Under the pieces are notes generated by a model. It saw nothing but the letters and a program-made list of their open reading frames with translations, did not search any database and had not been told where the DNA came from. DNA of 64,000 bases from Ciborinia camelliae (taxonomy: Eukaryota > Ascomycota > Leotiomycetes > Helotiales > Sclerotiniaceae), in contig JANPYM010000006.1 in assembly GCA_025890175.1 (NCBI GenBank), positions 1,952,875 to 2,016,874 on the forward strand. Direction: 5' to 3'. The position numbers were made by a program, and so were the translations under genes. This document shows, piece by piece, positions 1 to 61,850 of the stretch (its first letter is position 1; every line of letters starts with the position of its first letter).

Positions 1-2500
1 TTTGAATTTGAATTTGATAATATATATTTTTTAAATTTAATTTAATAAAAATAATATTTTTTTATAATTAATTAAAGAATTTATTAATTAAAAATAAAAA
101 TATCCAATTCTTCTTAATTATTTAATTTAACTTTTTATAATCAATATATAATTGATAATTTTTATTCTTTTTTAAAATAAATATAATTAAAATTTTAATA
201 AAGTTTATTAAATAATAAATTTATTTTTTTGATTAATATTTTTTTAAATATTTTTTTAAAATTAATAATTTTTTTTTTAAAAAAATATATATTAAACCTT
301 ATAAAAAAATAATATCTAATTTTAATTTAATTTAATATTCTATTAAATAATAATTAAATAATAATCTGTTTTTTTTTTTTAAAAAGATTTATTTTAAATC
401 CTTATATTTATTTAAAATATTAAAAATCTTTAAAATAAAAATTTTATACTCTATTTATATTTTTCTAAAATTAAATATTTAATTTAATTATAAAATCAAA
501 GTTTATATTCCCTTATTTATTTTTTGATAAACTTTTTATATCAAAATAATTTTAATAAATTTTAAATTGAATCAAAAACGAAATTTTATTAATTATTAAT
601 TAATTTTAAAATTTATTGTTTTTAATTATAAAAAATTTAAAATTATATTTATATAAAAAAGATTTAAAATAATTAAAATAAATTAATAAATATATATTTT
701 TTTATTTTTTAATATATTTATTATTTTTATAACAAATTAATAATTTTTATAAATAAAAATATAAATCCTTAATATAAATATTAAAAATATATTTTTTCCT
801 AATATAAATTCCCAATTTTATTTGATATATTTATTTTGTTAAACTATATTAACTTAAATATTTAAATCAATAAAATAATAAAATATTATTAATTAATATT
901 TTAACTTAAATATAATAATAATAATAATAATAATATATTTTTTTTTATTTAAATTTAAAATTATAAAAACGTTTAAAATAATTATTAAATTTCATTATTT
1001 TTTTATTAATATATTTTACTATTTTTTTATCAAAAAGATTTAATATTTTTTTATTAATATAAACCTATTTTTTTTTTAAAATAATTTTTTTTGAAATATC
1101 TTTTTTAATAATATTAATATTTAAACAAATTTTTATAAATAATAATATAATAATTTATTTATTAATATTAATAATATTTTAATAATCTTTTTTAATATTT
1201 TTAATATTAAGTTTTTTTTATTAATTAATTTTTTTATATAATTTTTTAATTTGATTTTATTTTAATTTTAATAAATTTTATTGATATAACGTTTTTATTG
1301 TTTTTTTATAATTTATAAAAAAATTAAATAGAATTTGAATAATATAATGGGATATTATATATTTTTTTAAAACAATAATTTGTAATATTAATAAAATAAT
1401 ACATTTAATTAACATTTTTTAATTTATATATTTATTTTATAAATTTTTTTTGAATTTCAAATTATCAAAAAGATTTAAATATTTTTTTATTTATATTAAA
1501 ACAAAAATCAATAAACAATTATTTACAATATATATTATTTGCTTTATATTTTATATTTTTTTTTAAATTATTTAGATAAAAAATAAAATTATTTATATTT
1601 TGTTTTAAATATTATTTAATTTTTAATATTTGAATAATTATTATATATTATCGATTTTTTTTATTCAAAATTATATTATATATATATTTTTTAAATTTTG
1701 TTTATATAATATTATTCAATTAAATTATATTAACAAATTAATATTATATTATTAAAAAGCGTTTTTTGAAATATTATATTATATAATCTATTTTTTAAAT
1801 ATTAATAAAAAAATAATATCCATTATTATTTCAAAATATTATTTTAGTTTAAAAAAAAAAGTTTTTTATTTAAAAGATATTTACTTTTTTGTATTAAAAT
1901 AATTTTTGAAATTTTAAAAATTTAATATTTAATTTAAAATGAACAAATAATATATTATTAAAAATTATTAATATTTTAATAATTTTTTGTATTTAAATAA
2001 ATCAAATTATAATTTCGTTTATAGTTTTTATATTATTTTTTATATTTTATATTTATTATTTTAAAATATTACAAAAACTTTTTTTTAAAAAATTTTTAAA
2101 TTTTAAAAAAAGATTTATACCTTATTAATATATATAGAATTTATTAATAATATTGTTTTATATATCATTAATTTTAATATTTTATTAAACAAATATAGGG
2201 ATATTTTTTATTTTTAATATTATTTTGAATATTATTAGTTTAATTAATAAATTGTTTTTTAAATAAAATAAAAAGAATTGTTAAAATAAAAAATTAATTA
2301 AATTAATAATAATTCTAAAACTTTTTATTACTTTTTAAATAAAATTTTTATTATTTTTTAAATAATCGATAATATATTATCGATTATTGTTTAAACAATA
2401 ATATTTTATTTAATATAAAGTTTTACGGGTTTTTAAAGTCTTTTTTATTTAATTATATAAATCTGTTTTATATATATTAATATTTTATAAATTAAATATT
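1..2500. repeat. Extremely AT-rich block, probable RIP-degraded repeat
   Basis: Nearly every base is A or T, with only isolated G or C, and no open reading frame of useful length exists on either strand. Short AT phrases recur, for example around 1029 and 1464, and 'aaaaagattta' is seen several times. The block stops abruptly near 2500, where ordinary base composition begins. In filamentous ascomycetes such blocks usually come from RIP of transposons (established knowledge); assignment to RIP here is inference. Mitochondrial or centromeric DNA cannot be excluded from sequence alone. Confidence 0.75.
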
Positions 2501-3334
2501 GCGTTAGAGATTCGCCATCGATCAACGTTGAATACTGGCGATCGCTGATACACCGGCTTTAAGCCTAAATTCTATGCCTAGGCATCTCTTTTGTTTTTAT
2601 TGCCTTTAGATCTGTAACATTAATCGAAAAATGGGAATAGCTTTAAAAATAAAAATAACTTTAAATAAACATAGTTTTAAATGGGAATAGTTTTAAATAA
2701 AAATAACTTTAAAAATCGATAATGTAATATAAGAATTTCAATATTTTTTTAATATTTCAATATATTTTTACAAATATTTGTATTAGATAATGTCTATACA
2801 AATGGTATAATTCGTTTTTTATATATACAATATACTGTATAAGATCCTTAATACGCGCTACCGTTGTACAGTAGTATACTAAATAGAATACTGGTGAAGA
2901 TGGTGCAGTGTCAGTGTATTCGGCTCGATTTTCTAAAAACTATGCTACAGATTGATTGATTCTATATAAGGCCGCTAGCGCATGCTAGCGCCGTACGGCG
3001 CTGCCATGACATAGTCACGTGATTATTCAACAGAAAGGTTATATAAGTACTTGAAAATTACTGCTTTCGGTGGTAAAAGTTGTCTAAAACAGAGGGGTCC
3101 CAAAAGTAGAGTAGGGGACTTAATTTCCTATTCTCATCATTGTTCACTGTTCTTTCTATATTAGAAACAAAATGAGAACAATATATTTACATCAAGTATA
3201 TAATTCGTTCAATGTGAGTTGTGTGTTTAATTATCCATCAAAAACTACTCGTTCCACAATTCTTGATACATCATAAACTATCAAAACCAAGTGAAACTCA
3301 AGCTTTTTACTCACACGCCCAAGATCTAGACAGA
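2501..3334. other. Transition zone and promoter side of the 2EXR gene
   Basis: Base composition recovers stepwise. An imperfect direct repeat of about 37 bp (a 'aaatgggaatag' block followed by 'aaaataactttaaa') occurs at about 2630-2666 and 2679-2715. A GC-rich palindromic knot lies at 2974-3001. A TCACGTGA box is at 3015-3022 and a TATA-like ttatataag at about 3039. No protein gene is visible. Confidence 0.5.
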
Positions 3335-9451: not shown

Positions 9452-10543
9452 ATGAATGCAGAATATTGGATAGAGAAATGTCAGCAGCTTGAAGCTCATA
9501 TATATGAACAGGACAAGGAGATCAGGGAGAAGACACAGCAATTGGAAGATGCAGATAACCATGCTAAGATTATCGAAGCTGAGCGAAAGACTCTGAAGCA
9601 AGAATTGAAGGATACGAAGACAGAAATGGAAATACAGAGAGAGAAAACGAACATATTGGCACGTATCGGTGTCGCTGTGAGGATTCGATATCTTGAACAG
9701 GCCAAATCTCAGGTGATGGGTCTCAATCCAAATAATTATAATTCCAATTTTATCCAGCGAGGGAACAATGCAGCACATAGGGCATATGGAGCTGTAGATT
9801 CTGCCATTTTCACGGGAGATTATCTCAGCGATGAAGAAAAGGCACAACTGGAGGATGTTTTTGGTCTCATTTACAACAATATAACCCCTGCGGAGTATGG
9901 AAATCTGCCTCCAAAGATGCTTCGGGCTATCGACCACCAGGGTAGCATTATCTCAATTTACTCTTTGAACAATGGGTCGATGTCAATCAGAGACAGGCAA
10001 GCTGCCAGCGATAGCATTCAATTCCTCAAAGATAAGAGATTGGAGCTGGGGGACAATGAATTTGAGAAAGACGAGGATGTCTCACGACACTTGATGAGAC
10101 TTGGAGAGCTTGCAAACCTGATCATTGCAAAGGCTCGGCGCCAGGGTGCTCTCAGTCCAGGAACTCCATCTACAAGTTATGGACCTCCTCAGGCTTCACC
10201 ACCCCATAAGAAGCACGCCAGTCCTTCGAAATTCCAACATAAAAAAGGCGCTGGAAGAGAAAAAGATCCATCTTTTGATTATTACTGTAAGTTTCGTACA
10301 TTCCGATTTAATATATATGAAGTTTACTGACTGACGATTTGGTTCTAGAGAGTTCCAAAGACTCCGGTCTATTCGTCGCAACAGTTCTACGATCATCAAC
10401 TATCTCCAAATTCTTCTTTACAGCCTGTATTTATCGATATAGCGATTATACTCACTGCCGATTGGAATATGGAGATTGCTTTTTTGCCAAGAGCATCTGT
10501 GGGTTCGAATTCAACGCCAAAACCCAAATGGGAGGGGAAATGA
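9452..10543 (+). CDS. Coiled-coil family member A
   Basis: The proposed CDS is join(9452..10286,10353..10543), 341 residues. The start is the first ATG in frame; the frame upstream has only TTG. The donor is TGTAAGT at 10287. Exon 2 keeps an open frame only if the acceptor is the third AG of 'ctagagag', ending at 10352; the earlier AGs give an immediate stop, so the C-terminus is uncertain. Residues 1-70 are a charged coiled coil. Next comes 'ARIGVAVRIRYLEQAK', matching gene C ('AKVGAAVRCRALEHSK'). A diverged form of the family domain follows, where 'AHRAYGAVDSAIF' stands in for the GNxRAD motif and 'AIDHQGSI' for the GTM motif. A Pro/Ser-rich tail (SPGTPSTSYGPP) follows. No enzyme motif, signal peptide or membrane span is seen. 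Function is unknown. Confidence 0.65.
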
Positions 10544-11662
10544 AGTGGCCTTTTTTGTTCACATTTTGCGAATACGGATTAAAACAATGTTCATTGTACA
10601 TATTTTTCCCTGATTCTGAAGTACTATGATCCGAGCTTAAGGTTTCCGAAGGTGGGGTGGAGTGAAGTCAGAAAGGGGCCTCGCTAATCACTAGCCTTGG
10701 GGTGAATTCGCAATTGATTTTGGTCAGGGACTGATCAATTGCGCAATTAGCAGAGAATCTTTTTGGTTTGTTCAATAAGTTAAGTTGCTGCATAGGTCTA
10801 GCGAAAGTAGAAGACCACTGTCATTAGAATGGCAAGTTTCCTACATTTTTTTACATGAAAATATCAATTATGATCCTGTTGGAATCGCCTCGGTGGTATG
10901 ATGTTGTTGATCAACGTATAATAAAAGTGGTATTGTATGGCATATCGATCTTCGCGTGGGCTTATATGCCCGCTACGCGGGCGGATAGGCCGCATGGTAG
11001 ATTTACTGTATCGCGACAGATCCATTAGCTCCCCATCTGTGACTGATCTAATGAGAACAGAGAACAGGGCTTTTTCTTGTTTAGCGATGATAATTTTTAC
11101 ATAGAGGCTTACATTACAGAAGCCCATTGATGGTACTGCAAGTCTAATCTAAATTTGATTGGATGAAATTCTGGTGTAAAGGCGGCAGAAAATGTATTGG
11201 ATTCGGAGATGAAGGATGTGGATTGAAGATCTAAAGTGTGGCTGCTTGCCAGGTCCTAAACTAGGTAATTCTACGCTGGTCTGGTGCTCAGGTGACTTGA
11301 TAAATCCACCCCTATTACTGCGGCCTTGAGAGGCGAATATTAGTTTCAAGACTGTTAACAATGCAACTCGTGATGGCAAATACAAACCAACCTGTATGGT
11401 CATTTCATAATTAGTGAATTGTAGAAATTGACTAAAGAGTAGGTACCTAGGTAGTGAAAGGAGTGGGAGCTCGGACCTAATGCGTTCAATACTCCGATCC
11501 TTCAGAGAGTTTTCCGAAAAATAATCCCAACACAACAACAACAACCTCAAGCTATCAAAATCAACCCCTCTCTTTGATATTTTATTGCATCTCTACAGCA
11601 CACTACGGTAATTTCAACTCATCAATCCTGGTTCCTCTACTAATTCTATTGCTTTCCAGATC
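10544..11662. other. Intergenic between A and B, containing a solo LTR
   Basis: Apart from the LTR at 10877-11018 there is no credible gene. The phrase starting 'gatctaaagtgtggctgctt' (about 11228) recurs in degraded form at about 17672, where it ends with the same 'gacttgata'. This suggests a dispersed repeat on both sides of the cluster. Confidence 0.45.
10877..11018. mobile_element. Solo LTR with 5-bp target-site duplication
   Basis: The 142-bp element starts TGTTGGAATC and ends GCGACA, the TG...CA ends typical of retrotransposon LTRs. It is flanked by GATCC on both sides (10872-10876 and 11019-11023). A G/A-shifted relative lies at 5005-5156. No internal retrotransposon sequence or second LTR is adjacent, so it is best read as a solo LTR left by recombination. 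A Copia-type origin is suggested by the TGTTGGAATC start but is inference. Confidence 0.75.
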
Positions 11663-13257
11663 ATGATCTTGGACAAGGAGTTGAAGAGAGAGTTTGAGAA
11701 AGATAAGTCTCGGCTTGCTGAATTAAACAAAGAATATGCCAATCATGAAGATATTTTACTCGAGAACCTCTATGTTTCGAAGAAGCAATTCCAGAAGATT
11801 TCCGATGAGAAACATGCAAGTCATGAAAAATGGAAAGCGCTCATCAAGGTAAGTTAATTTTTGTTATCAATTCATGAATGCACAGCTGATATGCATTGTA
11901 GAGTGCCGTAAACACTAGCTCTCTCCCAGAGCCAGCTGAGTTCAAGGCGATTGATAACCATGGAAAGAAACGGACAATAAAAATTGGCCCTAACACTAAA
12001 AGCCATGACGTGAAAAGGGCGATGGGAATGCATGACGCATCAAAGTACGACAAGAGGGAAAAGAGGGAACTGGCTGAGTGGAGTCGAAATCGGGAGGACT
12101 TTGGGGCGCGCATGGGTGTAAGTTGCGGTTATATCTTTACAAGTAATTCTATGCTGATGGCTGGATAGGACATCCTGAAGAGAAAGAATCGCATTCTTGG
12201 ATTTAGTTCGAGTGATAATTACTTTGATTCTTGCTTCGATGAGGCATCCTGCAATCCTCATACAGTCCCTTCAAATTTGGCCTACCATACATCCTTTCGA
12301 CAGCCGTCGCCCGACTTAAGACTCGAGGAAGAGAACTCTCGGTTGTTGGATCAAGTGAAAAAGTTTAGAGACCTTGAAGACGAAAGAGACAGACTTCTTA
12401 AGGACAACGAAGCCCTCTACGATTCATTAAAATCGACGCAAGAGCTCATGAGACAGGTTGCAGAAAATAGGGACGAGCATGTTCAAACAAACAGAAGATA
12501 TGCCGAGGAAAATCGAAAGCTGGAGCGTGCGTTGGAGGCACTTAAGGGAAACTCGGCACGCAGAGTTGCCTTTGATGACTACGATGACGATAATCTAAGG
12601 GAGGAGGTGAAGACGTTGTCTAATTCCTTGGCGAAAGTGAAGGAAGAGCCACATTACATTCTCCGAGACGTTGGAGTTGAATCTCGCCTCGAATTCCTCC
12701 AAAGTTCCAAGGCCAGCGAGCACTCAGAACATCACCATAACAGTATATCTTCCGGCCTCAACATAAACTTCAATACTCCTAGTATAAGCAGCGGCACGGG
12801 TAGCTCACATCGTGGAAATGTTCGAGCCGATGCTGCTTTGCTCTTCATCGATGCCAGTCATCGGGCAAAGTTTGAAAAGACCTTTGAGGATATCTACGGA
12901 ATGAGCGTCGATGAAGTCAAAGAAGGCCGTGGTAACAAGTATGCTCCAGCTTCCAAGGCAACGGAGATTGCAAATCTGAGGGGAACCATGGCACACAGGG
13001 GTTACTTCACCAAACACACACCGGATAGAGATGCAGAAGACCAGTTCCTCACCCTTTTGGACTATTGTGAATCGGAATACAAAGAGGCAATAAGAGGAAC
13101 GTCGACAGCTCTTAGAGCAGCTCAGGTATTTAGCGAAAACGCAGATGTTATCAACTCATGCGAGAGGATGCTCAGAATCTGTGATATCGTTGTTGGAACG
13201 TCCAGAGTTAACCCTCGTCCTCGTGGTCATTATATGAGTGGGGGGCTCAATTCTTAA
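11663..13257 (+). CDS. Coiled-coil family member B
   Basis: The CDS is join(11663..11848,11902..12117,12169..13257), 496 residues. All introns are phase 0 with GTAAGT donors and are 51-53 bp long. Residues 1-62 are a Lys/Glu-rich helix. Exon 2 is charged. A second strong coiled coil (about residues 190-270) follows, then a Ser/Asn-rich linker (SSGLNINFNTPSISS). The C-terminal family domain shows 'SHRGNVRADAALLF', 'YGMSVDEV', 'ASKATEIANLRGTMAHRGYF' and 'FLTLLDYCESEYKEA'. No catalytic motif, signal peptide or transmembrane segment is seen, so a cytosolic or nuclear scaffold or regulator is possible (inference). It lies in head-to-tail order with A, C and D. It gives the clearest copy of the family motifs together with D. 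Confidence 0.82.
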
Positions 13258-13694
13258 AATTGAGAATTAGGAACGTGGCATTGGTGGCTGGCAACGGCAG
13301 GATAATAGAGATACATACCTAGGAAATCAGTGCAAGAACGATTGGTATTAATTCTATGTGGCCAAGATTTGGCATATTGACACTGAGCGAAGTCATGATT
13401 TGATATGAACAAACCTCCTCTACAAAGGATGATTACTTTGATTCTCTTAAGAAATAATTCAGGCGAGATGTTACAAGATGTTATGCAAGAATATTAAGTG
13501 AATGTGACACTCCGAAACTGTACTGAAAACCACACAAATACCTATAGACAAGGTTTTTTACTTTCTAGAAGTATGTTCACTCGACGCCTCTCAACCTCAT
13601 TGTTCCTGCCCAATTCAACAATGCCGCCTCCATTGTGGCAGCCTCGCAGTCCAAAACTCCTGCCAATCTCGATACCAGGCAATATACCTTCGCC
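13258..13694. other. Intergenic B-C
   Basis: An ATG at 13573 opens a 41-codon frame (MFTRRLSTS...) that stops exactly across the start of gene C. It may be an upstream ORF of gene C or a missed first exon. Nothing else was seen. Confidence 0.4.
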
Positions 13695-14638
13695 ATGATG
13701 TTTGAAACGCCAAGGCGACGCATTTGGAAAGCGCTGAAGAGTCGTTTCTCCCAAGATGAAGTAAGCATAAAGTTCCATGTTATCTTCCCAAATCGATCAC
13801 ACTTATTGACTTATTTTTATCACAGAAACAAAGCTTTTCTCACGACAACGGAGTCAAAGCCAATCCTCAAGCTGCAATTGATACTCTAGAGGCAGAGTTA
13901 GTCGCTCAAAATGCCAGATTTGAGGTGGAACGAAAGATCCACGAAGAAACGAAGGGAAAACTGAGTGAGCAGCTTGAAGAATGTAAATCAGCATATCTGA
14001 AGCAATGTGAAATTCACAAAGACACAGAGGCAAGGCTGAAGAAGCAGCTGGAAGAATACAAATCCAAATATGAGGAACTCGAAAAGAAAACACCATTTCT
14101 TGAGCAGCTAGCTAAAGTAGGTGCAGCTGTTCGTTGCCGTGCTTTGGAGCATTCGAAGGGCCGAAGGACTTTTGGGGTGGAAAAGGACAAATTTACGAAC
14201 CTCCGCGGAGAAGTTGATATCAAAGTTATTGAGGAAGGGAATATCGCTTCTCATCTTGGAAACATACGAGCCGATTACTCCTTGTACCGATTGGGATATA
14301 AATCTTCGGAAAAGGACAGGGAACTTTTTTCTAGCATCTATACTATCAGACTAAATTTGGGGGGAATAGACATTCTAGCATCCAGAAAGGCAACAGAGGC
14401 TATGGATCTACAGGGTACAATGGCATTTTGCTTTGCCTTCACTGCGTCAACTAGATCTCCCGGTTACGATACCCGTTTCACTTCACTGTTTCGAGAGTTG
14501 AGAAAGATATGGACTAGGAGCGAAAGTGCAAGATCGTTTGATTCAGACCCTAAAGTGGAAGAACAATTGGTGTTAATGCGCAAGATTGTAGATCAAGTGA
14601 GGACGATGGAGAGACGGCAGAGAAATCAACATCGATAA
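13695..14638 (+). CDS. Coiled-coil family member C
   Basis: The CDS is join(13695..13760,13826..14638), 292 residues, with one phase-0 intron (donor GTAAGC, acceptor ATCACAG). Two ATGs stand in tandem at the start (13695 and 13698), and the frame is closed by a TAG further upstream. Residues 1-22 are basic (RRRIWKALKSRF). Residues 45-115 form a long coiled coil rich in E/K/Q. Then come 'QLAKVGAAVRCRALEHSKG', 'SHLGNIRADYSLYRLGY', 'SRKATEAMDLQGTMAFCFAF' and a C-terminal helix. This is the shortest complete member and so defines the minimal unit: coiled coil plus a domain of about 170 residues. Function unknown. Confidence 0.8.
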
Positions 14639-14956
14639 ATCGAATACGGCTATCAGGAGGAAGCGTACTCTTCGATCCATCTCATAAATCCACACCCTCC
14701 TACTCTAATGAGTTCTTCGTAATTTGCATCTGTGCTTCTAATGAGTGAATAGACAGAGGGTGGGATGATAGTTGTGCTTTACCCCTCAAACGTCTTGTGC
14801 GTATTCACTTCTCATTTGAAGCCACGGAGTGAATGGCATAAATCTATTCAATTGGTCAACCTAGAAGCGGGGTATTTACCATTAGTTTACTCTCGAGTAT
14901 CTTCAGAAAAACAACTCCAATTTCCCTTCCCGATCTTCCTCCAAAACTCCATCGCA
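14639..14956. other. Intergenic C-D
   Basis: Short promoter region of gene D. The D reading frame continues upstream as an open frame, but its first codon (14765) is an ATG far from the CAA/CTCC-rich leader, so the start at 14957 is preferred. Confidence 0.4.
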
Positions 14957-16379
14957 ATGATGGTCCCCAATCCTAGCGCAGAGGCTTTGGCCGTTACTGA
15001 GCAAGAACAAATTCAGCAGCTCGCCCAACTACACGCCCAACTCGCAGATCTCGATCTTAATCGCCTCCGCGCCTCTCACGATAGGCGAAAGGTTGACAAT
15101 TTCGCGGCCAAAAAACAGGTTTGGTTTGACGGAATCAATCAAAAGCTCGAGGTAAGACCGGCTCCATTGGTCTTACTTGATCCAAGTACTGATGATTACA
15201 AAGGGTATTCACAGAATATTGAGTGATGGTGAGATTCAGACACTCTTGGGTTCAATGAAAGTCAGCCACGACGGCATTTTGGTGACTTTGGGAACGCAGA
15301 ATGACTCGCAGAGTATTGAAAATGCCTGGGAGGAGAGTATGAGAGACCAGATTGAGAGTCTCACCGCTCAAGGTGCTGAAATTAGTTCTACTCAATGTGA
15401 ACAGAGAAAGGTAAGCAAGAACCAATCATACGCACAATGCCAGTGTGTCAAAAGATAATCGCTGACTCGATGGTTCATGATTCAGGAGATCTTGAAGAAT
15501 ATCCATCTCATTCTCGGCTACTCGGAGGATGAGATCCCTGCCGTTGTTAGTCAAGCTTCTGTAAATGATGCCCGATCAACAAATATTGCGTCCGATAGAA
15601 TTGCCTCGCTTGAACTGGAACTCTCAAACACTAAAGAGGCGTTGGCACAAGCTCAGAGCGAAAATGAATCTCTTATACTCGAACATTCTAGCACTAGAGA
15701 TCAGCTTCAAAACATTAGGACTTCGAGGGAATCTACTAATCTTGAGCTTGTTGATGCAAATAAGACTGTCCAGGATCTCAAAGCTAAACTGGCGTACAAA
15801 ATTGGCAAGAACAACGAGAGTCGCAGAGTTTCCGCCGCCATTAGCCTACGCTTTTTTAATCTGTCAACACGCCGCAACAATCATGGAGCATTTACCTTAG
15901 TTTCAGGACGTGGAATCGCCGATTTGGGTGCAATTCATCTTGGCTCGGATGCAGCCCATGGTGGTAATGTTCGACTCCATGCCAGCTTGATACATACAAA
16001 CTTTGAGGGGAAATTCGGAATGTATCCAGATGCATTCAAGTTGCATTACGATCTCACTGTCGATGAAGTAATCGGAGGCTGGCATGACAAATTTCGCTCT
16101 GGCTCGAAGAATACGGAAATTGCGAATATGAGAGCCACAATGGTCCACTGTTTGTCATTCTCCGAGCTTACACACGATAAAGACGGCGACGCTCTGTTCG
16201 ACAAGCTGAGGGGAGAGTGTAGAATCATCTATGCAAGTCTCCTCCGGCAGTTTGGATCAGCAGCCCAGGTACAAAGGGCATTTGATGAGAGCCGTGATAT
16301 CGCGAGAAAAATGGCTGATATGCGAATCATTGCCGGACGAATTGTTGATCGGGAGAGGCAGAGACTCAAAGGCGAGTAA
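14957..16379 (+). CDS. Coiled-coil family member D
   Basis: The CDS is join(14957..15151,15204..15410,15486..16379), 431 residues, with two phase-0 introns of 52 and 75 bp. Tandem ATGs (14957 and 14960) make the start, as in gene C. An alternative upstream ATG at 14765 would add 64 residues. The protein opens with a Gln/Leu-rich helix (EQIQQLAQLHAQLADLDL). A middle region follows, then a coiled coil in exon 3 (NTKEALAQAQSENESL). The family domain has 'AAHGGNVRLHASLI', 'YDLTVDEVIGGWHDKF', 'GSKNTEIANMRATMVHCLSF' and 'FDKLRGECRIIYASLL'. Its closest visible relative is B, which shares L/M-(T/S)-V-D-E-V. A short sequence just downstream of the stop (about 16497-16535) recurs at about 19107-19145. 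Function unknown. Confidence 0.8.
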
Positions 16380-16496
16380 AGGATCAAGTGCTGTATGTCG
16401 CGTGAACGAAGGGGCAGCTCTGGTTAGTTGGCTATATTCGGCATTCAATAGGGCAAGTCTCTGGGCAACTTCAGGGGGATCATAGCTTTAGTTTTT

Positions 16497-16535
16497 GCGT
16501 AATAGCGAAAGGCAAAATCAAATACAATTAAAACA
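16497..16535 (+). repeat. Short dispersed repeat, copy 1
   Basis: The core 'agcgaaaggcaaaatcaaa' followed by an 'acaattaaaaca'-like tail matches 19107-19145 ('cagcgaaaggcaaaatcaaa' then 'cattactaaaaca'). Copy 1 lies 3' of gene D and copy 2 lies 5' of gene E, so it may mark the edge of a duplicated segment. Confidence 0.6.
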
Positions 16536-16667
16536 TTAAAGGGATAGAAACATTGGTTTACAGATTTGAAATCACTGAAGGTAAAGCCATTGATTGATGT
16601 AACTTTGAAGTGGTAATCATTTAGGATTCTCTAATCTTATCCCGATAAGAGCGTATAAAGCTCAACT

Positions 16668-17034
16668 TCATTTGCCACCACTGGCAATCCCAGTAGGCAT
16701 ACACTTAACCGCTCCCTCCATTTGAACAGGAGTAGCGCATTTATAATTTCCATTCCCTTTGCAAGGAGTACCAAATGATGTGCCATCATCACGATTGGCT
16801 TGAAGACAATAGGCGTGACAATCCATTCCGTCAAGTGCGGGCTGCAAGTGAGATGGATGGGATTAGCTTATGCTTTGGCTTTGGCTTAAAAAAATGAGAT
16901 AGAGGGTTACGAACCTGAGTTGGTGATACACAGCAATTCTGGCCACCTCGATACTCGCATTGGCAATAATCACAAGCAGCTTGTACACCAACAGCGGCGA
17001 TGAGGAAGGAGGCGATAGCAGAGAATTTAACCAT
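16668..17034 (-). CDS. Small secreted cysteine-rich protein
   Basis: The CDS is complement(join(16668..16841,16915..17034)), 97 residues. The N-terminus MVKFSAIASFLIAAVGVQA is a classical signal peptide, with cleavage expected after A19 or A20. The mature part holds ten cysteines: five in exon 1 (CDYCQC and NCC) and five in exon 2. That suggests five disulfide bonds. The phase-0 intron uses a weak donor (GTTCGT) but a good acceptor (CACTTGCAG), and both exons stay open. It is the only non-family gene inside the coiled-coil cluster and is read on the opposite strand. Small secreted cysteine-rich proteins of plant-associated fungi are often apoplastic effectors or surface proteins; that role here is inference. 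I do not recognise a named family. Confidence 0.8.
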
Positions 17035-17150
17035 TTTGACGATTTAAGAAGGGTGTTGTGAATTGTTTTGATGAAGTGAATGTAAAGTGTGAGGTATGAA
17101 GTTTCAAGTTGTAGTAGAAATAATCTGCTGAACCAAGATGATATCTGTTC

Positions 17151-17157
17151 ATTTATA
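17151..17157 (-). promoter_or_regulatory. TATA box of the secreted cysteine-rich protein
   Basis: TATAAAT on the minus strand, about 117 bp upstream of the ATG at 17034, is a plausible distance for a fungal core promoter. Confidence 0.45.
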
Positions 17158-18097
17158 TCTTAACTTTTTTAAATATACTTTCTATACTTATTAATAAAAC
17201 TATATTATATGAATAGAGTTCTTGCGCAAAGGATTAATCCTTCTTGTTACAGATTGTTGTTACAGATTATATAATGAATTTAGAGGCTCTAAGTGGTTAG
17301 ATTATCTATTGTAACCAATGAGATTTTAAGTTTAAAGTAAATCGAAATCCTAGGCCCGTTTAGCTTTTTGAGGTAGCTGTAGAAAAGGGTGTATCCCTAA
17401 ATCTATAAAGTTTAGTATATTGCAATTGATTGCAACTCGTCATTTTGAACGCCTCGTCTTGCGCATAAAATCGATGCAGCTAGCTATAATGAGTATAGTT
17501 ACCGCAGATTCTATACCCCATCTAGAAAAGACTAGTAAGTGGACTGCGTTCAAGCGAATCCAAGCGAATCCAAGCGAAATTCTGCACAAGAAAATAGAAC
17601 CTTAAAATGTACTGATGACCTAGAAATAACATTGATTAGGTTGGTTTTAGAGATGAATCATGGTATCAATTAAAGATCTAAAGTAAGGCTGTTTATAAAC
17701 CACTTGCTAAGCTAATGCTACGCTAAGCTAGTGTACACATGACTTGATAGAAGCGTGGGCAACGGCAACACTTATAGAGCCTAAAACGTATTCTATTTAG
17801 ATATTAGATCTACTAGCAGTTCAAGGGGAATGGAAGCAGGCGATATTTTATTAGTACGGTAAGCTGATATGGCCAAAATAGCCAACTGTAATTTGTGGGT
17901 CGGGTCACGTGAGCCGGTCGCTGTGAAATCGAGTAAAATCGAAAGTCCACCTCGTCTCAGACATGAAACCACCCCTGTTACTAACCCTTACATTTTGTTT
18001 CAAGCAAAAGCATATATGATTTCCTTAATGCTATATATACCTATACAAAACCTTTATGATTTTATGTTTAACTAGATACTTATGTTACGAGATTATA

Positions 18098-18711
18098 TAT
18101 GGCCGGGCGACTAGGTATGCTAACAACAGATGCCTTAAGTGTCATGGCTAGGCCCCTGGTGAATGCCATGTAGCTAGTCATGTGATCGCCACTATATTAG
18201 ATGGTGATCTTTTGAAGACTATCCTTTCCTCTTCGGCATAGTTCTTTTATCATATACATCTTAGAATAATATGGATATTCTAGATACCATTCCGTATGCT
18301 CTTGATGACGTGCCTGACACCGCTTGTACACAGTCTATGCCTTAAGCATCCACTCTTAGAATAGCCTCACTTTAGCCGGATCGGGCTCGTAGCTTAAAAG
18401 ACCTCGGCTCCTCGCTCTTACGATTCTCTTCTGAAAGTATTATTAGATCTTTTAGCACAATACGATATTGCGGAATATGCTACGGCATATGGTGAATGTG
18501 GCATGTGACCGCGTGCATCTGTACTAGCGCATACCGCGTCTATATAGATCTCCCGGTTTACAACGTTAGATCATTATTATTAATAATAACAAGCGCAAAC
18601 TCATATCCTACTATATTGATCACTACCACCACGCGTGTGCTATCACCCGGAGTGATTCGAACAGACACGAAGGAAGCTAGGGATAGGAAGTATATTATTG
18701 TATTTGACTAG
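18098..18711 (+). pseudogene. Decayed ORF, possible transposon remnant
   Basis: Long stretches stay readable but are cut by TAG, TAA and TGA codons that could come from CAG, CAA, CGA or TGG by C-to-T or G-to-A change. About 18130 there is a Cys/His cluster (C-L-K-C-H-G-stop-A-P-G-E-C-H) resembling a damaged zinc knuckle, though its spacing is not canonical. The last part (about 18496-18711) is open but has no recognisable domain. A RIP-mutated transposon ORF is the favoured reading. Confidence 0.3.
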
Positions 18712-19106
18712 AGAGGTAGAGTACATTACTGTTGAACCGCTGTCCTTATATAAGACTCCCTCATTCTTAATGCGGCCTAGTTCCGAACCATGTGACCTGA
18801 CTTCCTCAATAATTTATAAATAAAAAATTTGTTTTGCCTTGGAATATTAGAATTTTTCTTTTGCTATTCTTTCACTGTCTCGCGTCGGGCAGGGAGGAAC
18901 CATCGCGTCTAGACTATAGCCATGGGGTTTTAAGGATATTGAAGGGCAGAGCAACCATTACTTCCTCGCCAAGGGGTTGTATACTTTCCGTTGGTGAGCG
19001 GTCCAAATGATGGTCGAGGTATTTAGTTAGCATTGGTTGTTGTGGCCGGTCGAGATTCGATATTAAATAGGGCAAACTTTTCGAAAACTTGAGGATAATC
19101 ATAACT

Positions 19107-19145
19107 GCAGGTTTACATTACAGCGAAAGGCAAAATCAAACATTA
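19107..19145 (+). repeat. Short dispersed repeat, copy 2
   Basis: This is the second copy of the 16497-16535 sequence, sharing an uninterrupted 18-base core. It lies about 350 bp upstream of gene E. Confidence 0.6.
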
Positions 19146-19492
19146 CTAAAACACAAAATGGAACCCTGAATTATGTGATTAGTCGCCAGTGCTGTTGCAT
19201 GGAGTGTGTATACGGCTGGTGTCATCATCAATAGATATCTCGATGGAAACATTGCCAGGTTAAAGGGATGTAACAACCGTACTTAAAAAGCATTCAGTAC
19301 TGCAGTAGCATACTATGCACCCTGGGCATTTGAACTGTTGATCTATTCAAGAACAGAATCTAATCCTTCTTCCACCAAAGATCCTCGACATCAAAACTTC
19401 AATATCATATCTAAACTTCGGCCTTTGGACATCAACACTTGAACATAAAAACTTCAAATACTACACCAACAAACACATGACACGCTCATGCC

Positions 19493-21464
19493 ATGGCGTC
19501 CCCAGTACCTTCTACCAACAAGAAGGGCAATAATAGAAGATTTTCGATCCATAAAGACATTCGAGTAAGTAGTAACTCACTATGTATCAAGCAAAGCCAA
19601 GTCAAATACCAGTTCATGAATACTGACCACCCTCTTACCATAGAAGCCACTCGCTCTATTCAGCCATAACATAAATCGCAACAAGACCGACACCAACGGA
19701 TCAGGCTCACATATTAGCGAGGCTTCCAAGAAAGCCATTGCCGTCCTAATCAATGAACACGAACGAACAAAATCGGAACTGGAAGATAAGAATATTTCGG
19801 AAAAGAGATTCAAGGAAGAGGTCGAGGAGTTGAGGACACAGATACAAGAGCTTCAAAGTACAATCAGGGATGGCCAGGATACTTTGAAAAAGTTAAATGA
19901 TAAAATAGAAAAGGGAATTCAAGAAGCCTCTGCCGCCCCCGATACACAGGAAGCTCTTCTTGAAAAGCTAATTGCAAAGGAGAGCGAAATCGATCGAGAA
20001 TTGTTCTATCTACGAGATGATAAAGTTGTGGCTAGAGGTGAACTGTGGTTTGCTTTAATGGGTAAAGTTGATGAGTCGGTTGAGGTAATGATTATAAGAT
20101 GGGGATTTTCCTACATGGGTTACTGACGCATGTTGTAGCATCCTGATCAAGCCAGTCGGGACAGAAACCTAGTAACCCGAAAGGAAATGTACATTAGGAC
20201 TAAGCTATCCGTGGCCCAGGAGACGAGAGCAAAGCTTTTATTAGCAAAAGAGGTAAGTATATATTTCCGACATGTTGAAATTGTGCTAACCACATGGCGG
20301 GTATTGTAGGAAATCCAAGAACAGAAATTTGAGATTTCTCAGATCAACCATCATTTACAACTTGGAGAAGTCTCTCCAATTCCAGAGGATAATAGCCAAA
20401 TCTCGATTGTTCCAGAAAGTGGCCTGGGAGAGGATGATGATGATGTCGATGATGATGTCGATGATGATGTCGATGATGATGTCGATGATGATGTCGATGA
20501 TGATGTCGATGATGATGTCGATGATGATGTCGATGATGGTCCCGTCGAGAACGATCGAGACACCTCTTGGGTCACATCCAATAGAGAAGAATCTTCGAAT
20601 GTACTAGGCCTTCTATCTGGAGAAGACGATCAAGCGGTTGCAAACGATCATCTGGCGACAAATAAAGAGAATGAATTCCTCAAGAAAGAACTGATCTGCA
20701 CCCAGGAAAAGATACAAAAATGGGAGGCTAAGTTTAAACACTTTCGGCTCGACACAAAGGGCATAATTGAACGACTTTCTGGTGAGATTTCTTCTACTCA
20801 AGGAGCCCTTAGAGAGTATAAGAATGCGTTAGACGAGGCTGATGATGTGCGTGAACGTCTAATTTACAATTTGGCCAAGGTAGAGGAGGAGAAAGCCCGC
20901 CTTTTGATTATGGTCCAAGAGATTGCACTTCCAGTATTGGCAAGCAGCGCTGAAAATATGAAAAGAGTCAAGCGAAATGGTATTGACATGCCATTGGACA
21001 ATAGCCATCTTCCATTTAACAAGGAAATTGCAGGTGCGGGAACTACTGCTACAACTGGGGGTCACGTCAGTGCGCATTTTGCCTCGATCGTCTTGGGCGA
21101 GAAAGGGGTTGTTAGCGGCTCGATCATCAGTCATGAAATGTTTCTCAATATGTATGGCTTATCTGTTGGGGAATACAGGAACTTATACAACGCCTCCAGC
21201 AAACTCGATGAAATGTTAAATATGCATGCGAAGCTTGTGGAATATGGATCTTTTACAACAAAGACGCTTTCCAAGACTCGGGACGCCCTATTCCGAAACC
21301 AATTAGCGCAATGCTTACTGGAATTTGAGGCAATTGATGCACCGAATTCTATGGAAAAAGGCCAAATTTTCGATGCTGCGGTTCGGGAAAACCAGTTCGA
21401 GATGTTCAATGAAATGGTACAAGTTATGCAGGATATCGAACGTTTGCACAAGGCCGCGATGTGA
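19493..21464 (+). CDS. Coiled-coil family member E with acidic DDDV repeat
   Basis: The CDS is join(19493..19564,19644..20084,20139..20252,20310..21464), 593 residues; all introns are phase 0. The start is the second of two close ATGs, at 'gccATGgcg', because only it stays in frame with exon 2. The N-terminal part is basic, then a coiled coil spans most of residues 60-210. Exon 4 carries eight Asp-Asp-Asp-Val units encoded by a 12-bp minisatellite, a second coiled coil (to about residue 425) and the family domain. The domain shows 'TTGGHVSAHFASIV', 'MYGLSVGEYRNLY', 'ASSKLDEMLNMHAKLVEYGSF' and 'FRNQLAQCLLEFEAID'. It is the longest member and has lost the T-M of the RATM motif (K-L instead). 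Function unknown. Confidence 0.8.
20431..20538 (+). repeat. 12-bp coding minisatellite (GATGATGATGTC)n
   Basis: Eight GTC codons are spaced exactly 12 bases apart, with three GAT codons between them and no substitutions. Perfect units encode acidic D-D-D-V inside gene E. Copy number probably varies between strains (inference). Confidence 0.95.
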
Positions 21465-22421
21465 GAAAGGGTGGACTAGTCACTTGAATCTTGATCGGAT
21501 AGGCCCACATATCCTATGGGAACTATTGTTCTAATCGAAGTTTCTAATTGATATAAGCCAAGGGGAGGATCAGAATGAGAGGCATGGATGCATCATCTAA
21601 AGGATAATAAGAACAATATACCACCTACATATAATCTAACGCACTTCTCTCTGAGACCCGAAACTTTGCAGTTATTAAACCTCTCCTTCAAGATTCAACC
21701 CGATTATCTAATTTTGCGACTGAAATACGGGAAATATGCCAGACTCTGTTGAGGAGTCTGGCACACAGGTGTGCCATATCTTCCAAATATACCATGTAAT
21801 TATTTTCCGAACAGTTAGCCGAATCTACAAATTTACCATCCAGCAAGATGATAGGTAAATTACAAGTTTATTAACAGTGTGCCCAGAAACTCAGTGTAAT
21901 GAGAAAGTTGATAATCGTTCGTCGATCTAGCCCTACCTAGCCCATTAACTAGTCATACATCTAACCAACCAACCAACGGGACACCCCATTGATCAATTGA
22001 AGTGTAAAGCGTCCCATTAATTAATTGATTTTAGCCAATCTAGTCTAGTATCATGATACCGACGATTTCATTTCATATGCCGGGACCCTACCCAACATAG
22101 CAGACTTCTATAGAGGTTTAGGTGCGGGCCTGAAGTCACGTGTTGGAAGTTGGGTGTCGACCTTCAGGGTGAAAGCCCTGAAAATACAGGCTATGATAGT
22201 GTATAGTGTATAATTCAGTAGGATCCGCGTCCTAGATCGCCGTCCATCCAATATTGACTTTGTACTATTTACAAAAACAAACCAATTATATCTCCAAAAA
22301 AGAAACCTTGATCCTATTGACTGAACTGGACCATCCATCTCATTTGAAGAATCCCATTACCCGATTTGAATTTACAATTAACCAATGGGACGGATTAAAG
22401 GACGGGTCGGACTAGATGTCT
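21465..22421. other. Convergent intergenic region E-F
   Basis: This holds the 3' flanks of genes E (plus) and F (minus). No gene was recognised. It contains an 'aaccaaccaacc' microsatellite at about 21962. Confidence 0.45.
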
Positions 22422-24095
22422 TCAAACCCCAGAAATACCATTCGGGCTGGGATAACGCATTGTGCTTATCTCATGAGCAACGGTGTTTTGAACTATCTGC
22501 TTCATGAGTTCCAAACTATTTTTGCCCTGCTTCTCATTCTTGAGGAAGTTTACCAGAGAAGCGTATCGTGCCGACCAGGCAGTTAAACCGTTAGTTGCCA
22601 AAAGACGCTTGTAATGTACGAAAAGCCTCTCAAAGGAAGCCTCGAAGTCTTTATCGTTTCTATTATTGGAGCAATAAATTGTCTTGAAGTAGCATCTATA
22701 CATGGTGGCATGCATGTTGAGGGGATCTAGGAGAATCTTTGGCGGAGAGCTCTTAGAAAAAAGGAAGATCGTTTTACATTCTTCCGGTGTGATGCGATAA
22801 GATTTGGTAAAATCAATATAGCGTTCGCCTCCAACATTCCAGCCAGTACGATTAGGGTCGACCATAAAAAGCGAAAAGTCTGCTGAGATGTCACCCTCAT
22901 GACAAGTTTTATTACGAGCGTCAATCACTTCCTTGCTTGCGGGGCCCCGACCTTCAATCTCGAGGATCGCTCCACCGTGATGAATTCTGCGTCCCGAATG
23001 GTGGAATCCGTGTCGAACACGAGAACAAAACTGCGCGAGCACTCGGTAATATGGAAGGGACGCTTCGATTCTTTCCGAATCTTGTTCGGACGCAGTGTTT
23101 TCCTTCTGGGTATCATTTGATATAGGGTGTCTGTTTTTGTATAGCTCCATGGCTGCCTCAGCTTGCGCTTGAGCCTTTAGTGCTGCGTCAAGTTTGGTTT
23201 GAAGGGAAGCATTGTCTGCGAGAATCTTCTCGACGGTATTATCCTTGCTTTTGGTTGGTTCGATGTTGATTAGAGAAGGTGCGGTCATAGTGGTGATGCC
23301 AAGAACCATAGAAATGTCTAGTTTAACTGCCTTTATCGAAGTTAGTTCTGATTGTTTTGTAAGTGGAGCTATACCAAGCCTTACCTCAAATTCCTCGCAC
23401 AAACGTCCTCTCATATCATCAGCACGCTCTCTCTCTGCGGCGGCAAAGTTTAGTAGGTGATCATTGATATCAGATACTGAGAATTCCTTCAAGTCCTCGA
23501 GAGGATATTTGACACCCAGTTCGGCATTGATTTTCTCAATCATCTCGTTATTCTTATTGATATTCTCGTTGATTTTCTACCGATAGGTATTAGTGATGGG
23601 CTTCACGCATCGACTGAAGGGGTTTACAATTCCACTTACAGTAAATACCACCGAAAGATTATTGAATTTATCAATAAGAACTCTCTTCTCGTTGAGGACA
23701 TTGTTTTGAATGGTCTGCTCGATTCGCTCTCCATCAAGATCGAGAAGTTCAAGCCTCAGCTGTTCAAACCTCTCCACAAGTTCTTTGAGGGGCTTATGAT
23801 TCTCATCTTCGGGATTTCTGGGTACAAGAGTGGAAGTTCTAGGAGGCTTTGTAATATGCTTCAATGCTTCCGAAAATGAAGTTTCATCGGATTTTGGAAG
23901 AGATTCATCATCACCAAGCAGTGGTTCATGATTAGTAGAAACTAGTGGAGGTTTGTTGGATTGTATGGGTGAGATTTGTGGTATTTCTGAGAGCCTTGAT
24001 TCATTGATTTCATCGGGGGAACGTTCCTTGACTGGACAGACAGAGAAAGCAGATGAAGTTTGAACAAAAGAAGAAGAGTTTGTGCTATTGATCAT
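22422..24095 (-). CDS. Coiled-coil family member F
   Basis: The CDS is complement(join(22422..23330,23385..23576,23640..24095)), 518 residues. The start is the ATG at 24095; the frame further upstream has only TTG. The 54-nt intron at 23331-23384 (donor GTAAGG, branch ACTAAC) contains no stop and is a multiple of three, so retention would insert 18 residues. It is called an intron because pseudogene G has one at the same place. The N-terminal third is Ser/Pro-rich, followed by 'RLELLDLDGERIEQTIQ', a coiled coil ('NASLQTKLDAALKAQAQ'), then the domain: 'HGGAILEIEGRG', 'CHEGDISADFSLFMVD', 'LDPLNMHATMYRCYF' and a long C-terminal helical part. F and G form a subfamily with a H/Y-x-x-G-E/A-I-x-I-E-G-R-G motif that A-E lack. 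Confidence 0.8.
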
Positions 24096-24807: not shown

Positions 24808-27800
24808 CTACTGGGTCGAATGAGGCGACTGCGGTGGAACAGGTGATTCTTGACTCGGTTTTAAAACCTTTTGCATCTCCTCTATATCCAATATAGTATC
24901 ATTGAACACGTGGGCCAATTCGGTAAAAATCTTGTTCCTGTTCCACTCCCCTCTCATCTTCCATATATAGTCCATCAATTCGCGATTTATTTGTTCCAAT
25001 TGTTCAATAGAACAACCGCTTGTCCCATCCGTAAGGTTTTCCAGTAACTCGGTCGCATAATACTCCGTCATGATGTATTCCTTTTGTGAAGATGACTGCG
25101 TAGAATTGACTTCAACTAGTGAGTCATCAGCCACTCCGCTATTCTGGGAAGGCTTGGGTGCAGATGGGCGTGGGGGTGCATTAAACTGTGGAACAGGTGG
25201 TCTTTCTTGTGAATTATGTGCGCTTGGGGTCTGAGATGGCAATCCAAGATTACCACGGGCAAGAGCATGTGCTTGTGAATGAAACCACTCTGTCTCCCCG
25301 CTACTTTTCTCTCCCTCGGTCACATTAGTGACTTGGGTACTTAGGTTCTGTGAGAGCCTTTGCGTCTCCGGAAGATCGGCATCATGCCTATGCCCATCTA
25401 TCGGACTTGAAGCACCTGGACGAGTCCCATTTGTTGCCTGTGTACTCCAACCATCCGATGTCCTCTTTGAGGTAGTTGCCTCTGACGTTTTCTTTCCGGA
25501 AGTTGTTGGAGATGCGTTGTTGATTAATGCACTGAGAGGAGTGTCATGTGATATCTCCTGGAAAGCAGATCGCTGAGAATTGAATCCAGTAGCACGGTTA
25601 GACATGCTGGAAGGAGCCATTACCGTCTTAGGTGGCCATTGCTGGCGGGGAAGAGCAGGCGAATGCTGGAAATATTCGGAGGCATTTTCGTTTGTCCCAC
25701 TCATCATAGTATCTTCGCCGCTTGCTCTAGAGGGCACGGAAGATCCATTCGTCATATTGTGCTGAGACCCTGAAGCTATCGAATGGCCGTTGGACAGAGC
25801 GTTGGGTGTTTGGAAAGGTGGAACAGCAGAAACTGGACGTCGGCCAGGAACAACTTGGCCTAAGTTTATTGCTCCAGGAGAATTGAGCCTCGAGCTCACT
25901 GCCCCTGAAAAGACATCTGAATGCACTAAATCCATCCCAACGTCAACTTGAGCATTCTTTCGTTTTTTCTCCTCCGCCTCCTTAGTTCGTTGTAACTGTC
26001 GATGATATACGCCTTCGCAATCGGCAAACTTTGGATCCCTTTCAATCAAGTCAAGATCAACTGCAACATTAGCAACTAGCTCCTTGGTCCTGAGCTGTCT
26101 ATCCTTATCACCAAAGTGTTTGGCATCTTTAGCAAGAGTTCTGATATCGGCTCCAAAATCTTTTGGTCGAGCATAGAAACCATTGGCTAGCCGCTCCTCG
26201 ATCACATTGGTATCTAAATTGTAACATATCTTTCCGGTCGCCGTTTCCCGAAGACATTGAACTCCATTTTTGTCAACATCCAGTTCAAATGGTCGGAATT
26301 GAGGTATGTCTGGGCGGACAAAATTTGGATCCTTTTCGTTTAAGAGATATTGGATCTGGCTTTGCAAAAGTACAGGTTGCCGAAACTTTTTATACTTCCT
26401 GTGAATTTGATCCATGATAGGTTGAATCGCCACCTTTAAAAGATTCAATATCTGATGATCTTGTTTCTTTTGTGCCTTGAGTTCCTCTTTAGTCGGTATT
26501 CTTGGCGGCGGTGGTGGGGCCAGCTCAAGTGTTTCTAGCTTACGCTTCTTACGATTCGCTGGGTCAGGAAACTCGTTTGGTGCTTTTCTGACATACGAAA
26601 TGACGCTTTGAAAGAATTCTTCTCGTAGTTCCTAAGGTGTATTAATAAACTAAAATCACACGGTAAATAAAATGTTGCTTACCCTCGTTGGTCGATTGAT
26701 GGTGAAGCGGTTTTTTCTTGAAAAGCCAAATATATCACGCAGCATTTGTGGATTCACCTTGTCCGGACTGACGTCTGTTATACCGAGCACTAAGACGGGA
26801 TCTGTAGGAGGAATCGCTTTGAGAAGGCCAAGGAACGTGGTTATCACATTTTCTGGTAGAGTATGATACCAAGTATCAATTGCTGGCAGGTATATAACAC
26901 TTGGTTTGTGGCGCTTGACTTCGGCAAATAACTGAACGATAGCCGACTCCGCGGACTAGTCTCACATTAGTATATGAATCAAGAAGAAAATGAGCAGAAA
27001 TACAAACCCTGGCAGAATCCATATATATGGTTGGAAGATCAAAACTCTGGACATGTAGTCCCTCAAAATGATTTAACAAGGCACCACCAAGATACGCTTG
27101 ACCCATGCCAGGCTCACCACCAATTAGTAATCTTGGACGGAACACTCGGGACTTCTCAAACTCTTGTTGCATTGTTTCTCGGCCAAACCCCTGATCCTCA
27201 TCGTCGTATTGTTCATACATCGCTTCTTCCAAAGCAGTTGTCTTCTTCTTGACGGGAATTAGGTTATCAACAATCTCTTCGATCTCTTTTAGTTGATCTC
27301 GAAGGAGAGGTTCGATAAGCTTCGGCAGTGCTTTGGCCCCTGAAGATGTCGAACGTTCAGATGACGGCACCATCTTCTTAACTGAGAGCATAAAATCTTT
27401 GGCCGTAACCTTGATTTTTGAGGCATCCACAATGAGCTTGTCATTAGAGGAATAGATTTGAGGATATGTACGCTGGATTGAATTGAGAGCAGCTTCTGTA
27501 CACAGAGCACGAAGATCAGCACCACCGTATCCCTTTGTAGCGCGAGCCAAATTATCCTTGAATGTATCATCAATACCCCAGTCCTTGGTATGGATGTTGA
27601 TGATAGATTTTCGACCCTCGATGCCAGGCAATGGAAAATAAAATTCTCGATCAAACCGACCGGGTCTTCTCAAGGCCGGATCAATGTTATCGGGTCTGTT
27701 TGTTGCTCCAATGACAATGACTTGTCCTCGACCATCCATGCCATCCATGAGTGCCAACAACGTAGAAACAATAGAAGCATGAATCTGCTCTTGCTTACTT

Positions 27801-60698: not shown

Positions 60699-61850
60699 TT
60701 AATTTGATCTCTTAGATTTGTTGACAGTTTCATTGACAATTTCTCCCATAGTCTGAAGACAACTCAGTGCCATTTCCCCATCCGGGTTATCTTTTCCATC
60801 AAAGTAAATACCTTTCTCCTCAGCGGATCAAGATAGATTTAAGGCGTTGTAGATCTTCTTGCACTCCGCTAAAATGTCATTAAAACGCTTATCCCTGCTC
60901 TTATTGTACGTATACTCAGTTTCATAGAAGAATCTGAACATGGTTGCGCGCATGTTATACATGTCAGAGAGTTTTCGAGAAGTATTAAACAACGGTTCAT
61001 AGTCACAGGGTGAGAATGCCATAAAAGCTCTGAATTCACCATCAATTTGGTCCAAGTTAAATAGCTTGCAATGGGCAAAGTCCGCATCAATGTGACCCTC
61101 GTGACAGGCCCTGTTGCGCTGAATTCTGATGTCTTGGTCTGGGGAGCCCCGACCCTCGATATGAATCCATTCTCCATCAACATATTTCTGCTTGCCACTC
61201 TCGAAAAATCCCTCGCGGACAACTAAGCTATGAGATGCAATAGTTTCAAATAATCCTATTTTCTTTTTAAGGACGACGTTTTCTCTTGCCATGGCATTCT
61301 CCTTCTGATCTGATGATGATTGAAAACCAAGAGTCTCGGATATCTTATTCTTGGTTCCTGTACACAATTAGTGTTTGATGCGTAGCAGATGAAGCTTGAA
61401 GTTGCCTTACCTCAAGCTCTGATGTAGCCTCGACTTTCCTGGAAAGAGCACTTGCTCTCGCGTCGGCGACGAATTTATCTTCATTGAAACTAGTCTTCAA
61501 GAATACATCCAGTTCTTGCATAGGAATATCAAGTGACTTTTCGGTGTTTTGCTCGGCGATGGTCTTATTGATAAACTGTCACTCATCATTAGTTATCCAT
61601 AACTCCATTAATTATGATGAATCCAGTATCTTGGCCTACAGAAACGGCAAGTGTCAACCGATCAGTGATAGAATATTTCTCAATAGCAAGTTTACGTTGA
61701 ATTGATGCCTCAAGTCGTTTTCTACCGAGATCGAAGAGCTCCAAATTCAATTCTCTCTTCATCTTTATCGATTTGAGCGTCTGCAGCGGAAGACTTTAAG
61801 GAACCCATACTGCTGGTAATCGAAGTGCTTGATGATTCTGAGACAACCAT
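60699..61850 (-). pseudogene. Coiled-coil family member G, damaged
   Basis: It is a paralogue of gene F with introns at the same two places. Exon pieces are 61850-61641 (broken), 61575-61411 and 61349-60699. Two lesions are visible. From ATG 61850 the frame ends at a TAG (61722-61724), while the F-like sequence (NLELFDLGRKRLEASIQ) is in the next frame, so an indel has occurred. An in-frame TGA at 60828-60830 cuts off the last 43 codons, which stay open and resemble F (QTMGEIVNETV against KQIVQNTVAHE). The domain motifs IHIEGRG, CHEGHIDADFAHC, SRKLSDMYNMRATMFRFFY and DILAECKKIYNAL are intact. An internal ATG at 61762 would permit a 269-residue shortened protein, so expression cannot be excluded. 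Confidence 0.75.

What the first reader, a model, noticed from the sequence alone, without database searches (positions are those of the whole stretch)
9452..24095. Cluster of six paralogous coiled-coil proteins with an unrecognised C-terminal domain
Genes A-F each join coiled coil to a C-terminal domain with four ordered motifs: (1) V-G-A-A-V-R-x-R-x-L-E-x-S-K in A and C, weaker elsewhere; (2) H-x-G-(N/D/H)-(V/I)-(R/S)-A-(D/H)-x-(S/A)-L; (3) S-(R/S)-K-x-(T/D)-E-x-x-N-(M/L)-(R/H)-(A/G)-T-M-x-x-x-x-x-F; (4) F-x-x-L-x-x-x-C-x-x-x-Y. No family I know has this combination. The copies are highly diverged in sequence and length (292-593 residues) but keep order and motifs. That fits birth-and-death evolution of an accessory family near repeats. 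Four are head-to-tail on the plus strand. A conflict, recognition or self/non-self role is possible but is inference only.
Basis: partly seen in the sequence, partly recalled or inferred. Interest (0 to 1): 0.93.

Follow-up and report, generated by a model that had tools for sequence, protein, structure and literature searches.

The report
Fungal tandem genes with unknown domain
A fungus that blights camellia flowers carries a cluster of old, strongly diverged sister genes that share a helical protein domain without a match in the domain and structure libraries searched here; related moulds appear to keep the cluster, and what the proteins do is not yet known.

Summary
The cluster is real. Genes A-F each end in one homologous domain of about 185 residues; profiles built without each gene's own group still find it (E 2.6e-10 to 8e-33). 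Three more copies exist: G in the window (61250-60837, minus) and H and I, 23-28 kb before the window. The nine found lie within 89 kb of one contig of a 46.2-Mb genome. The organism is Ciborinia camelliae. No Pfam cut-off was reached in the pieces scanned. AlphaFold2 models of A and F are helical with helices in register; Foldseek found nothing significant. Two claims fail. The four motifs are not common to all six: as written, A has only motif 1; F has motif 2 and a weak motif 3. Recent birth-and-death is not the main pattern: A, B and F form separate clades across Sclerotiniaceae, and gene tags suggest one conserved block; G is truncated. A HEPN ribonuclease idea is not supported family-wide. 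Best guess: intracellular coiled-coil oligomers presenting a new helical binding domain. Function is inference.

The parts
9452..10350 (+). Gene A, exon 9452-10286 plus stop codon completed at 10349-10350 (278 aa; NCBI model NHQ30_005602 has other ends)
   Evidence: orthologues begin alike
9641..10150 (+). C-terminal domain of A
   Evidence: HMM match; leave-one-out E 1.1e-12
11663..13257 (+). Gene B, exons 11663-11848, 11902-12117, 12169-13257 (496 aa)
   Evidence: identical to NHQ30_005603
12646..13212 (+). C-terminal domain of B
   Evidence: E 9.8e-22
13695..14638 (+). Gene C, exons 13695-13760, 13826-14638 (292 aa)
14102..14623 (+). C-terminal domain of C
   Evidence: E 8e-33
14957..16379 (+). 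Gene D, exons 14957-15151, 15204-15410, 15486-16379 (431 aa)
15807..16364 (+). C-terminal domain of D
   Evidence: E 3.3e-30
19493..21464 (+). Gene E, exons 19493-19564, 19644-20084, 20139-20252, 20310-21464 (593 aa)
20907..21452 (+). C-terminal domain of E
   Evidence: E 8.3e-15
22422..24095 (-). Gene F, exons 24095-23640, 23576-22422 (536 aa)
   Evidence: orthologue P0015, 64% identical
22461..23051 (-). C-terminal domain of F, with R-N-x-x-C-H motif
   Evidence: (E 2.6e-10)
60702..61367 (-). G, F-like copy: open frame 61367-60831 with domain 61250-60837, ended early by an in-frame stop; 60827-60702 is a likely remnant of the missing C-terminus (weak match, E 0.08)
   Evidence: E 3e-22
1..3000 (.). 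Right part of the AT-rich island (6% G+C in window 1-2000) that separates H and I (upstream, outside the window) from A

Best explanation
An old tandem family kept together in Sclerotiniaceae. Each protein joins its own N-terminal half, largely coiled-coil-like, to one shared, mostly helical C-terminal domain of about 185 residues. Shown: the homology, the location, the orthologous clades of A, B and F, and (by prediction) helices in the same order in A and F. Inferred: the six-gene block is conserved as such; the proteins are intracellular; the N-terminal halves make homo- or hetero-oligomers; the C-terminal domain is a binding or assembly module whose conserved N-x(3)-H-x-[GA]-x(4)-D turn and F-x(3)-Y helix help form a partner or ligand site; the paralogues have divided the work by diverging in the N-terminal halves.
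For: Leave-one-group-out detection of all nine members. The nine found lie on one contig within 89 kb. Clades of A, B, F with support 99-100, and tags and contig lengths consistent with one block in 7 Botrytis/Botryotinia species. Strongest positions when the nine groups weigh equally, F numbering: Y412 7.8 of 9, F408 7.3, H378 7.3, L388 7.2, D385 7.0; N374 5.9. AF2 models with pLDDT 82.0 and 83.6, pTM 0.79 and 0.73; 83% of 163 aligned residues share secondary structure against at most 79% in 147 circular shifts. In the A model motif 1 lies in a 45-residue helix continuous with the coil.
Against: No experiment, expression or localisation data. The coiled-coil evidence is weak. The two AF2 models share alignment rows and are not independent. 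The motif-2 histidine is not kept in all B orthologues (my motif-2 pattern fits 6 of 14) nor in E. No structural neighbour hints at binding. The genes between B and F in other species were not retrieved. Absence of a signal peptide was judged by eye only.
Confidence: 0.4

Rival explanations
1. The domain is a diverged HEPN-like RNA-cutting or RNA-binding domain, active in the F/G branch and perhaps A/H, inactive in the others.
For: F orthologues keep R-[NK]-x-x-C-H in 16 of 16; A orthologues keep R-G-N-[DN]-x-x-H in 15 of 15; B keeps N-x-R-G-[TI]-M-A-[HY] in 14 of 14, with H in 12. HEPN domains are helical and marked by Rx4-6H with a polar residue after R (PMC3710099, section 6).
Against: The arginine is not family-wide: at the F-group position G has 6.4 of 9 groups and R 2.0. 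The domain is about 185 residues with about eight helices, against 100-120 residues in HEPN. No HEPN family among the Pfam rows shown and no HEPN structure that I recognise among the Foldseek rows shown (50 of 195 and 50 of 171).
Confidence: 0.07
2. A self/non-self recognition or intracellular conflict locus that evolves by birth and death.
For: Clustered diverged paralogues beside AT-rich DNA, one truncated copy, possible remnant flank before E.
Against: Orthologous clades across genera; tag order consistent with a stable block; few 90% clusters within B. cinerea; no HET, NACHT or other recognition domain at cut-off in the pieces of A-F scanned. Neighbours were not annotated exhaustively.
Confidence: 0.13
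3. The similarity is only coiled-coil composition and the genes are unrelated.
For: Many of the weak Pfam rows are coiled-coil families; 14 of 36 profile pairs are not significant.
Against: The best leave-one-out matches lie in the C-terminal domain and exceed the best reversed control by nine orders of magnitude or more; motifs 2 and 3 of most members are not reproduced in shuffles.
Confidence: 0.02

Closest known systems
Unannotated 'hypothetical proteins' of Sclerotiniaceae: orthologues of A, B and F in Botrytis, Botryotinia, Sclerotinia, Monilinia, Stromatinia
   Same: Same domain; by tags, A and F (and in two species B next to A) on one contig
   Different: Named only 'hypothetical', 'uncharacterized' or 'predicted' (or by a bare identifier) in their sources; orthologues of C, D, E were not returned, which may be a limit of the search
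HEPN superfamily (PMC3710099; abstract, section 6 and passages read)
   Same: Helical; an R-x4-H motif in the F group
   Different: Arginine not conserved family-wide, larger domain, no profile or structure match found here
Fungal HET/NACHT incompatibility genes (passages of PMC4585241 read)
   Same: Multi-gene families in the same group of fungi
   Different: No such domain at Pfam cut-off in the pieces of A-F scanned

Membership tests
Any Pfam-A family | Score at or above the curated cut-off | tested here: not met
   seven pieces of A-F (5' exons of B, D and E not scanned), best 22.5 bits against a cut-off of 36; 32 domain rows, 29 families at E up to 0.1 (25 shown), best E 0.00049 (Rootletin, 2 rows); cut-offs are not shown there
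HEPN superfamily | Rx4-6H conserved through the family | tested here: not met
   Met in the F group (16 of 16), but G stands at that position in 6.4 of 9 groups
HEPN superfamily | Four-helix HEPN fold of about 100-120 residues | tested here: inconclusive
   Helical models, no significant Foldseek match, best E 0.45 and 0.37; absence of a match does not exclude a fold
HEPN superfamily | Metal-independent RNase activity | not testable with these tools
   Needs an assay
HET/NACHT allorecognition genes | HET, NACHT or related domain | tested here: not met
   Not among the Pfam rows of the pieces of A-F scanned
Secreted effector family | N-terminal signal peptide | not tested
   No predictor at hand; N-termini look charged or polar by eye

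The most novel reading that the evidence does not exclude
The block encodes one hetero-oligomeric intracellular machine built on an undescribed helical domain, in which the branches that keep R/H near the N-x(3)-H turn (F/G, A/H) are catalytic RNA-cutting subunits and the others inactive regulators: a Sclerotiniaceae defence or RNA-control system.
Probability: 0.05. Interest if true: 0.8.

Novelty: new member of a known kind. Interest (0 to 1): 0.36.

Why it matters
Lineage-restricted tandem families with unnamed domains are common in fungi (general knowledge), so the kind is known. This one is unusual in that every copy found in the genome sits in one 89-kb neighbourhood, and the domain is well delimited, predicted with fair confidence and kept across several genera of a plant-pathogen family. 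It is ready to become a named family and a clean target for structure and knockout work.

Full report
What the window is. The window lies on contig C24 (2,778,430 bases) of a 46.2-Mb, 27-contig fungal genome. Gene B is identical, over the 496 residues of my model, to NHQ30_005603 of Ciborinia camelliae, and A overlaps NHQ30_005602; both NCBI proteins come from a contig of the same length. Ciborinia camelliae belongs to Sclerotiniaceae, Helotiales.

Check of the observation. I built spliced models for A-F. They run 9452-24095 as described; A-E are on plus and F on minus. BLASTP among them gives B-D 4e-16, C-D 1e-9, A-C 5e-8, B-C 9e-8, A-B 4e-6, B-E 7e-6, D-E 4e-5, C-F 1e-4 and D-F 5e-4; the other six pairs are not significant. 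A fairer test removed each gene with its orthologues, rebuilt the profile from the other groups, and searched 1374 six-frame ORFs from 124 kb: all nine members were found, E 2.6e-10 (F) to 8e-33 (C); the best reversed ORF over all runs was 0.31, and the best ORF outside the nine 0.016, the likely remnant of G itself. Profile-profile comparison is below E 1e-3 in 22 of 36 pairs and at 90% probability or more in 13; C is the hub that links A with the rest of the window's genes.

More copies, all found in one place. Single-protein searches of the whole genome with A, B, C, D, E, F, G, H and I found no member outside C24:1925105-2014241, apart from one C12 row at E 0.85 that I take for chance. Besides A-F these are G (window 61250-60837, minus), H (ORF of 745 codons; domain match C24:1929442-1929975) and I (523 codons; C24:1925117-1925647). 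The tool scores only its best candidates, so nine is a lower bound. Between H/I and A lies an AT-rich island with a stretch of N. G ends early at an in-frame stop, and a short likely remnant of the expected C-terminus follows; an assembly error is not excluded.

Age and stability. Protein searches returned 15 A-like, 14 B-like and 16 F-like proteins, the genome's own A and B among them. In a maximum-likelihood tree of 52 domains, A (15 rows), B (14) and F (17) each form a clade with support 99-100 on stems of 0.85-1.27 changes per column; G joins F, and H and I join A. The tool warns that the long single branches may be misplaced. A and F came back together for eight Botrytis/Botryotinia species. 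Tags and equal contig lengths put them on one contig in seven; between them lie four gene numbers in aclada, hyacinthi, calthae, elliptica and paeoniae, three in the cinerea record and two in fragariae. In the eighth, galanthina, they are on different contigs. B is next to A in aclada and hyacinthi. The genes in between were not retrieved, so that they are C, D and E is inference. Self-BLASTN of the 124 kb (E 1e-4) found no DNA similarity between the coding parts of the nine genes. This reads as an old set of duplications kept in place, not a recent expansion.

Structure. AF2 models of the F domain (pLDDT 82.0, pTM 0.79, 217 residues) and the A domain (83.6, 0.73, 200 residues) are helical, F with a small hairpin after helix 1. 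Mapped through the sequence alignment the helices coincide: 83% of 163 aligned residues agree, against a maximum of 79% in 147 circular shifts. Motif 1 is in helix 1, which in A runs on from the coil; motif 2 is the end of the next helix, a turn and the following short helix; motifs 3 and 4 fall in later helices. Foldseek found no PDB match at E <= 0.001 for either model (best 0.45 and 0.37) and none for F among viral models (best 0.57).

How it may work. In 39 alignment columns one residue reaches half of the nine equally weighted groups; the strongest are Y412, F408, H378, L388 and D385 in F numbering. H378, D385 and L388 lie in the motif-2 turn and the helix after it, F408 and Y412 in the next helix. 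These are not absolute: B orthologues often lack the histidine (pattern fits 6 of 14) and E lacks it. Because the domain is conserved while the N-terminal halves of B-F are not detectably related, I read the C-terminal domain as the common working part, and the coil-like halves as parts that set assembly and partner choice. This is inference.

The HEPN lead. F orthologues keep R-[NK]-x-x-C-H in 16 of 16, which resembles the Rx4-6H motif of HEPN RNases (PMC3710099, section 6). Most groups have G at the R position, the domain is larger, and no profile or structure match was found. I keep it only as the boldest open reading.

Novelty. No Pfam family reached its cut-off in the pieces scanned (one search shows no cut-offs, best E 0.00049 to a coiled-coil family), and the profile has no significant PDB sequence match (best E 0.17). 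The kind, a lineage-restricted tandem family of unknown function, is familiar.

Noticed in passing
window 17034-16717 (-): Start of a small ORF with a signal-peptide-like beginning and several cysteines, interrupted by a likely intron, between D and E.
   Followed up: no
window 16436-16544 and 19055-19162: 109-bp direct repeat, 72% identical: the 3' flank of D recurs before E, perhaps the trace of a lost D copy.
   Followed up: partly
C24 about 1927808-1927980 and window 62388-62227: About 170 bp, 72% identical, inverted; one place between I and H, the other upstream of G.
   Followed up: no
window 20436-20538: 12-bp tandem repeat, 8.6 perfect copies, coding an Asp/Val-rich stretch inside E.
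   Followed up: no
window 3221-4261: A 2EXR-family gene (PF20150, E 1.6e-17) beside the AT-rich island; two similar-looking ORFs lie on the far side (judged by eye).
   Followed up: partly
C24:1922836-1923243 (-): 136-aa ORF with a weak match to the domain (E 0.035-0.27 in the leave-one-out runs where listed), possibly a decayed tenth copy.
   Followed up: partly
window 24808-30001 (-): AAA ATPase with a bromodomain match below cut-off, next to F; probably a conserved chromatin-type ATPase, name recalled not tested.
   Followed up: no
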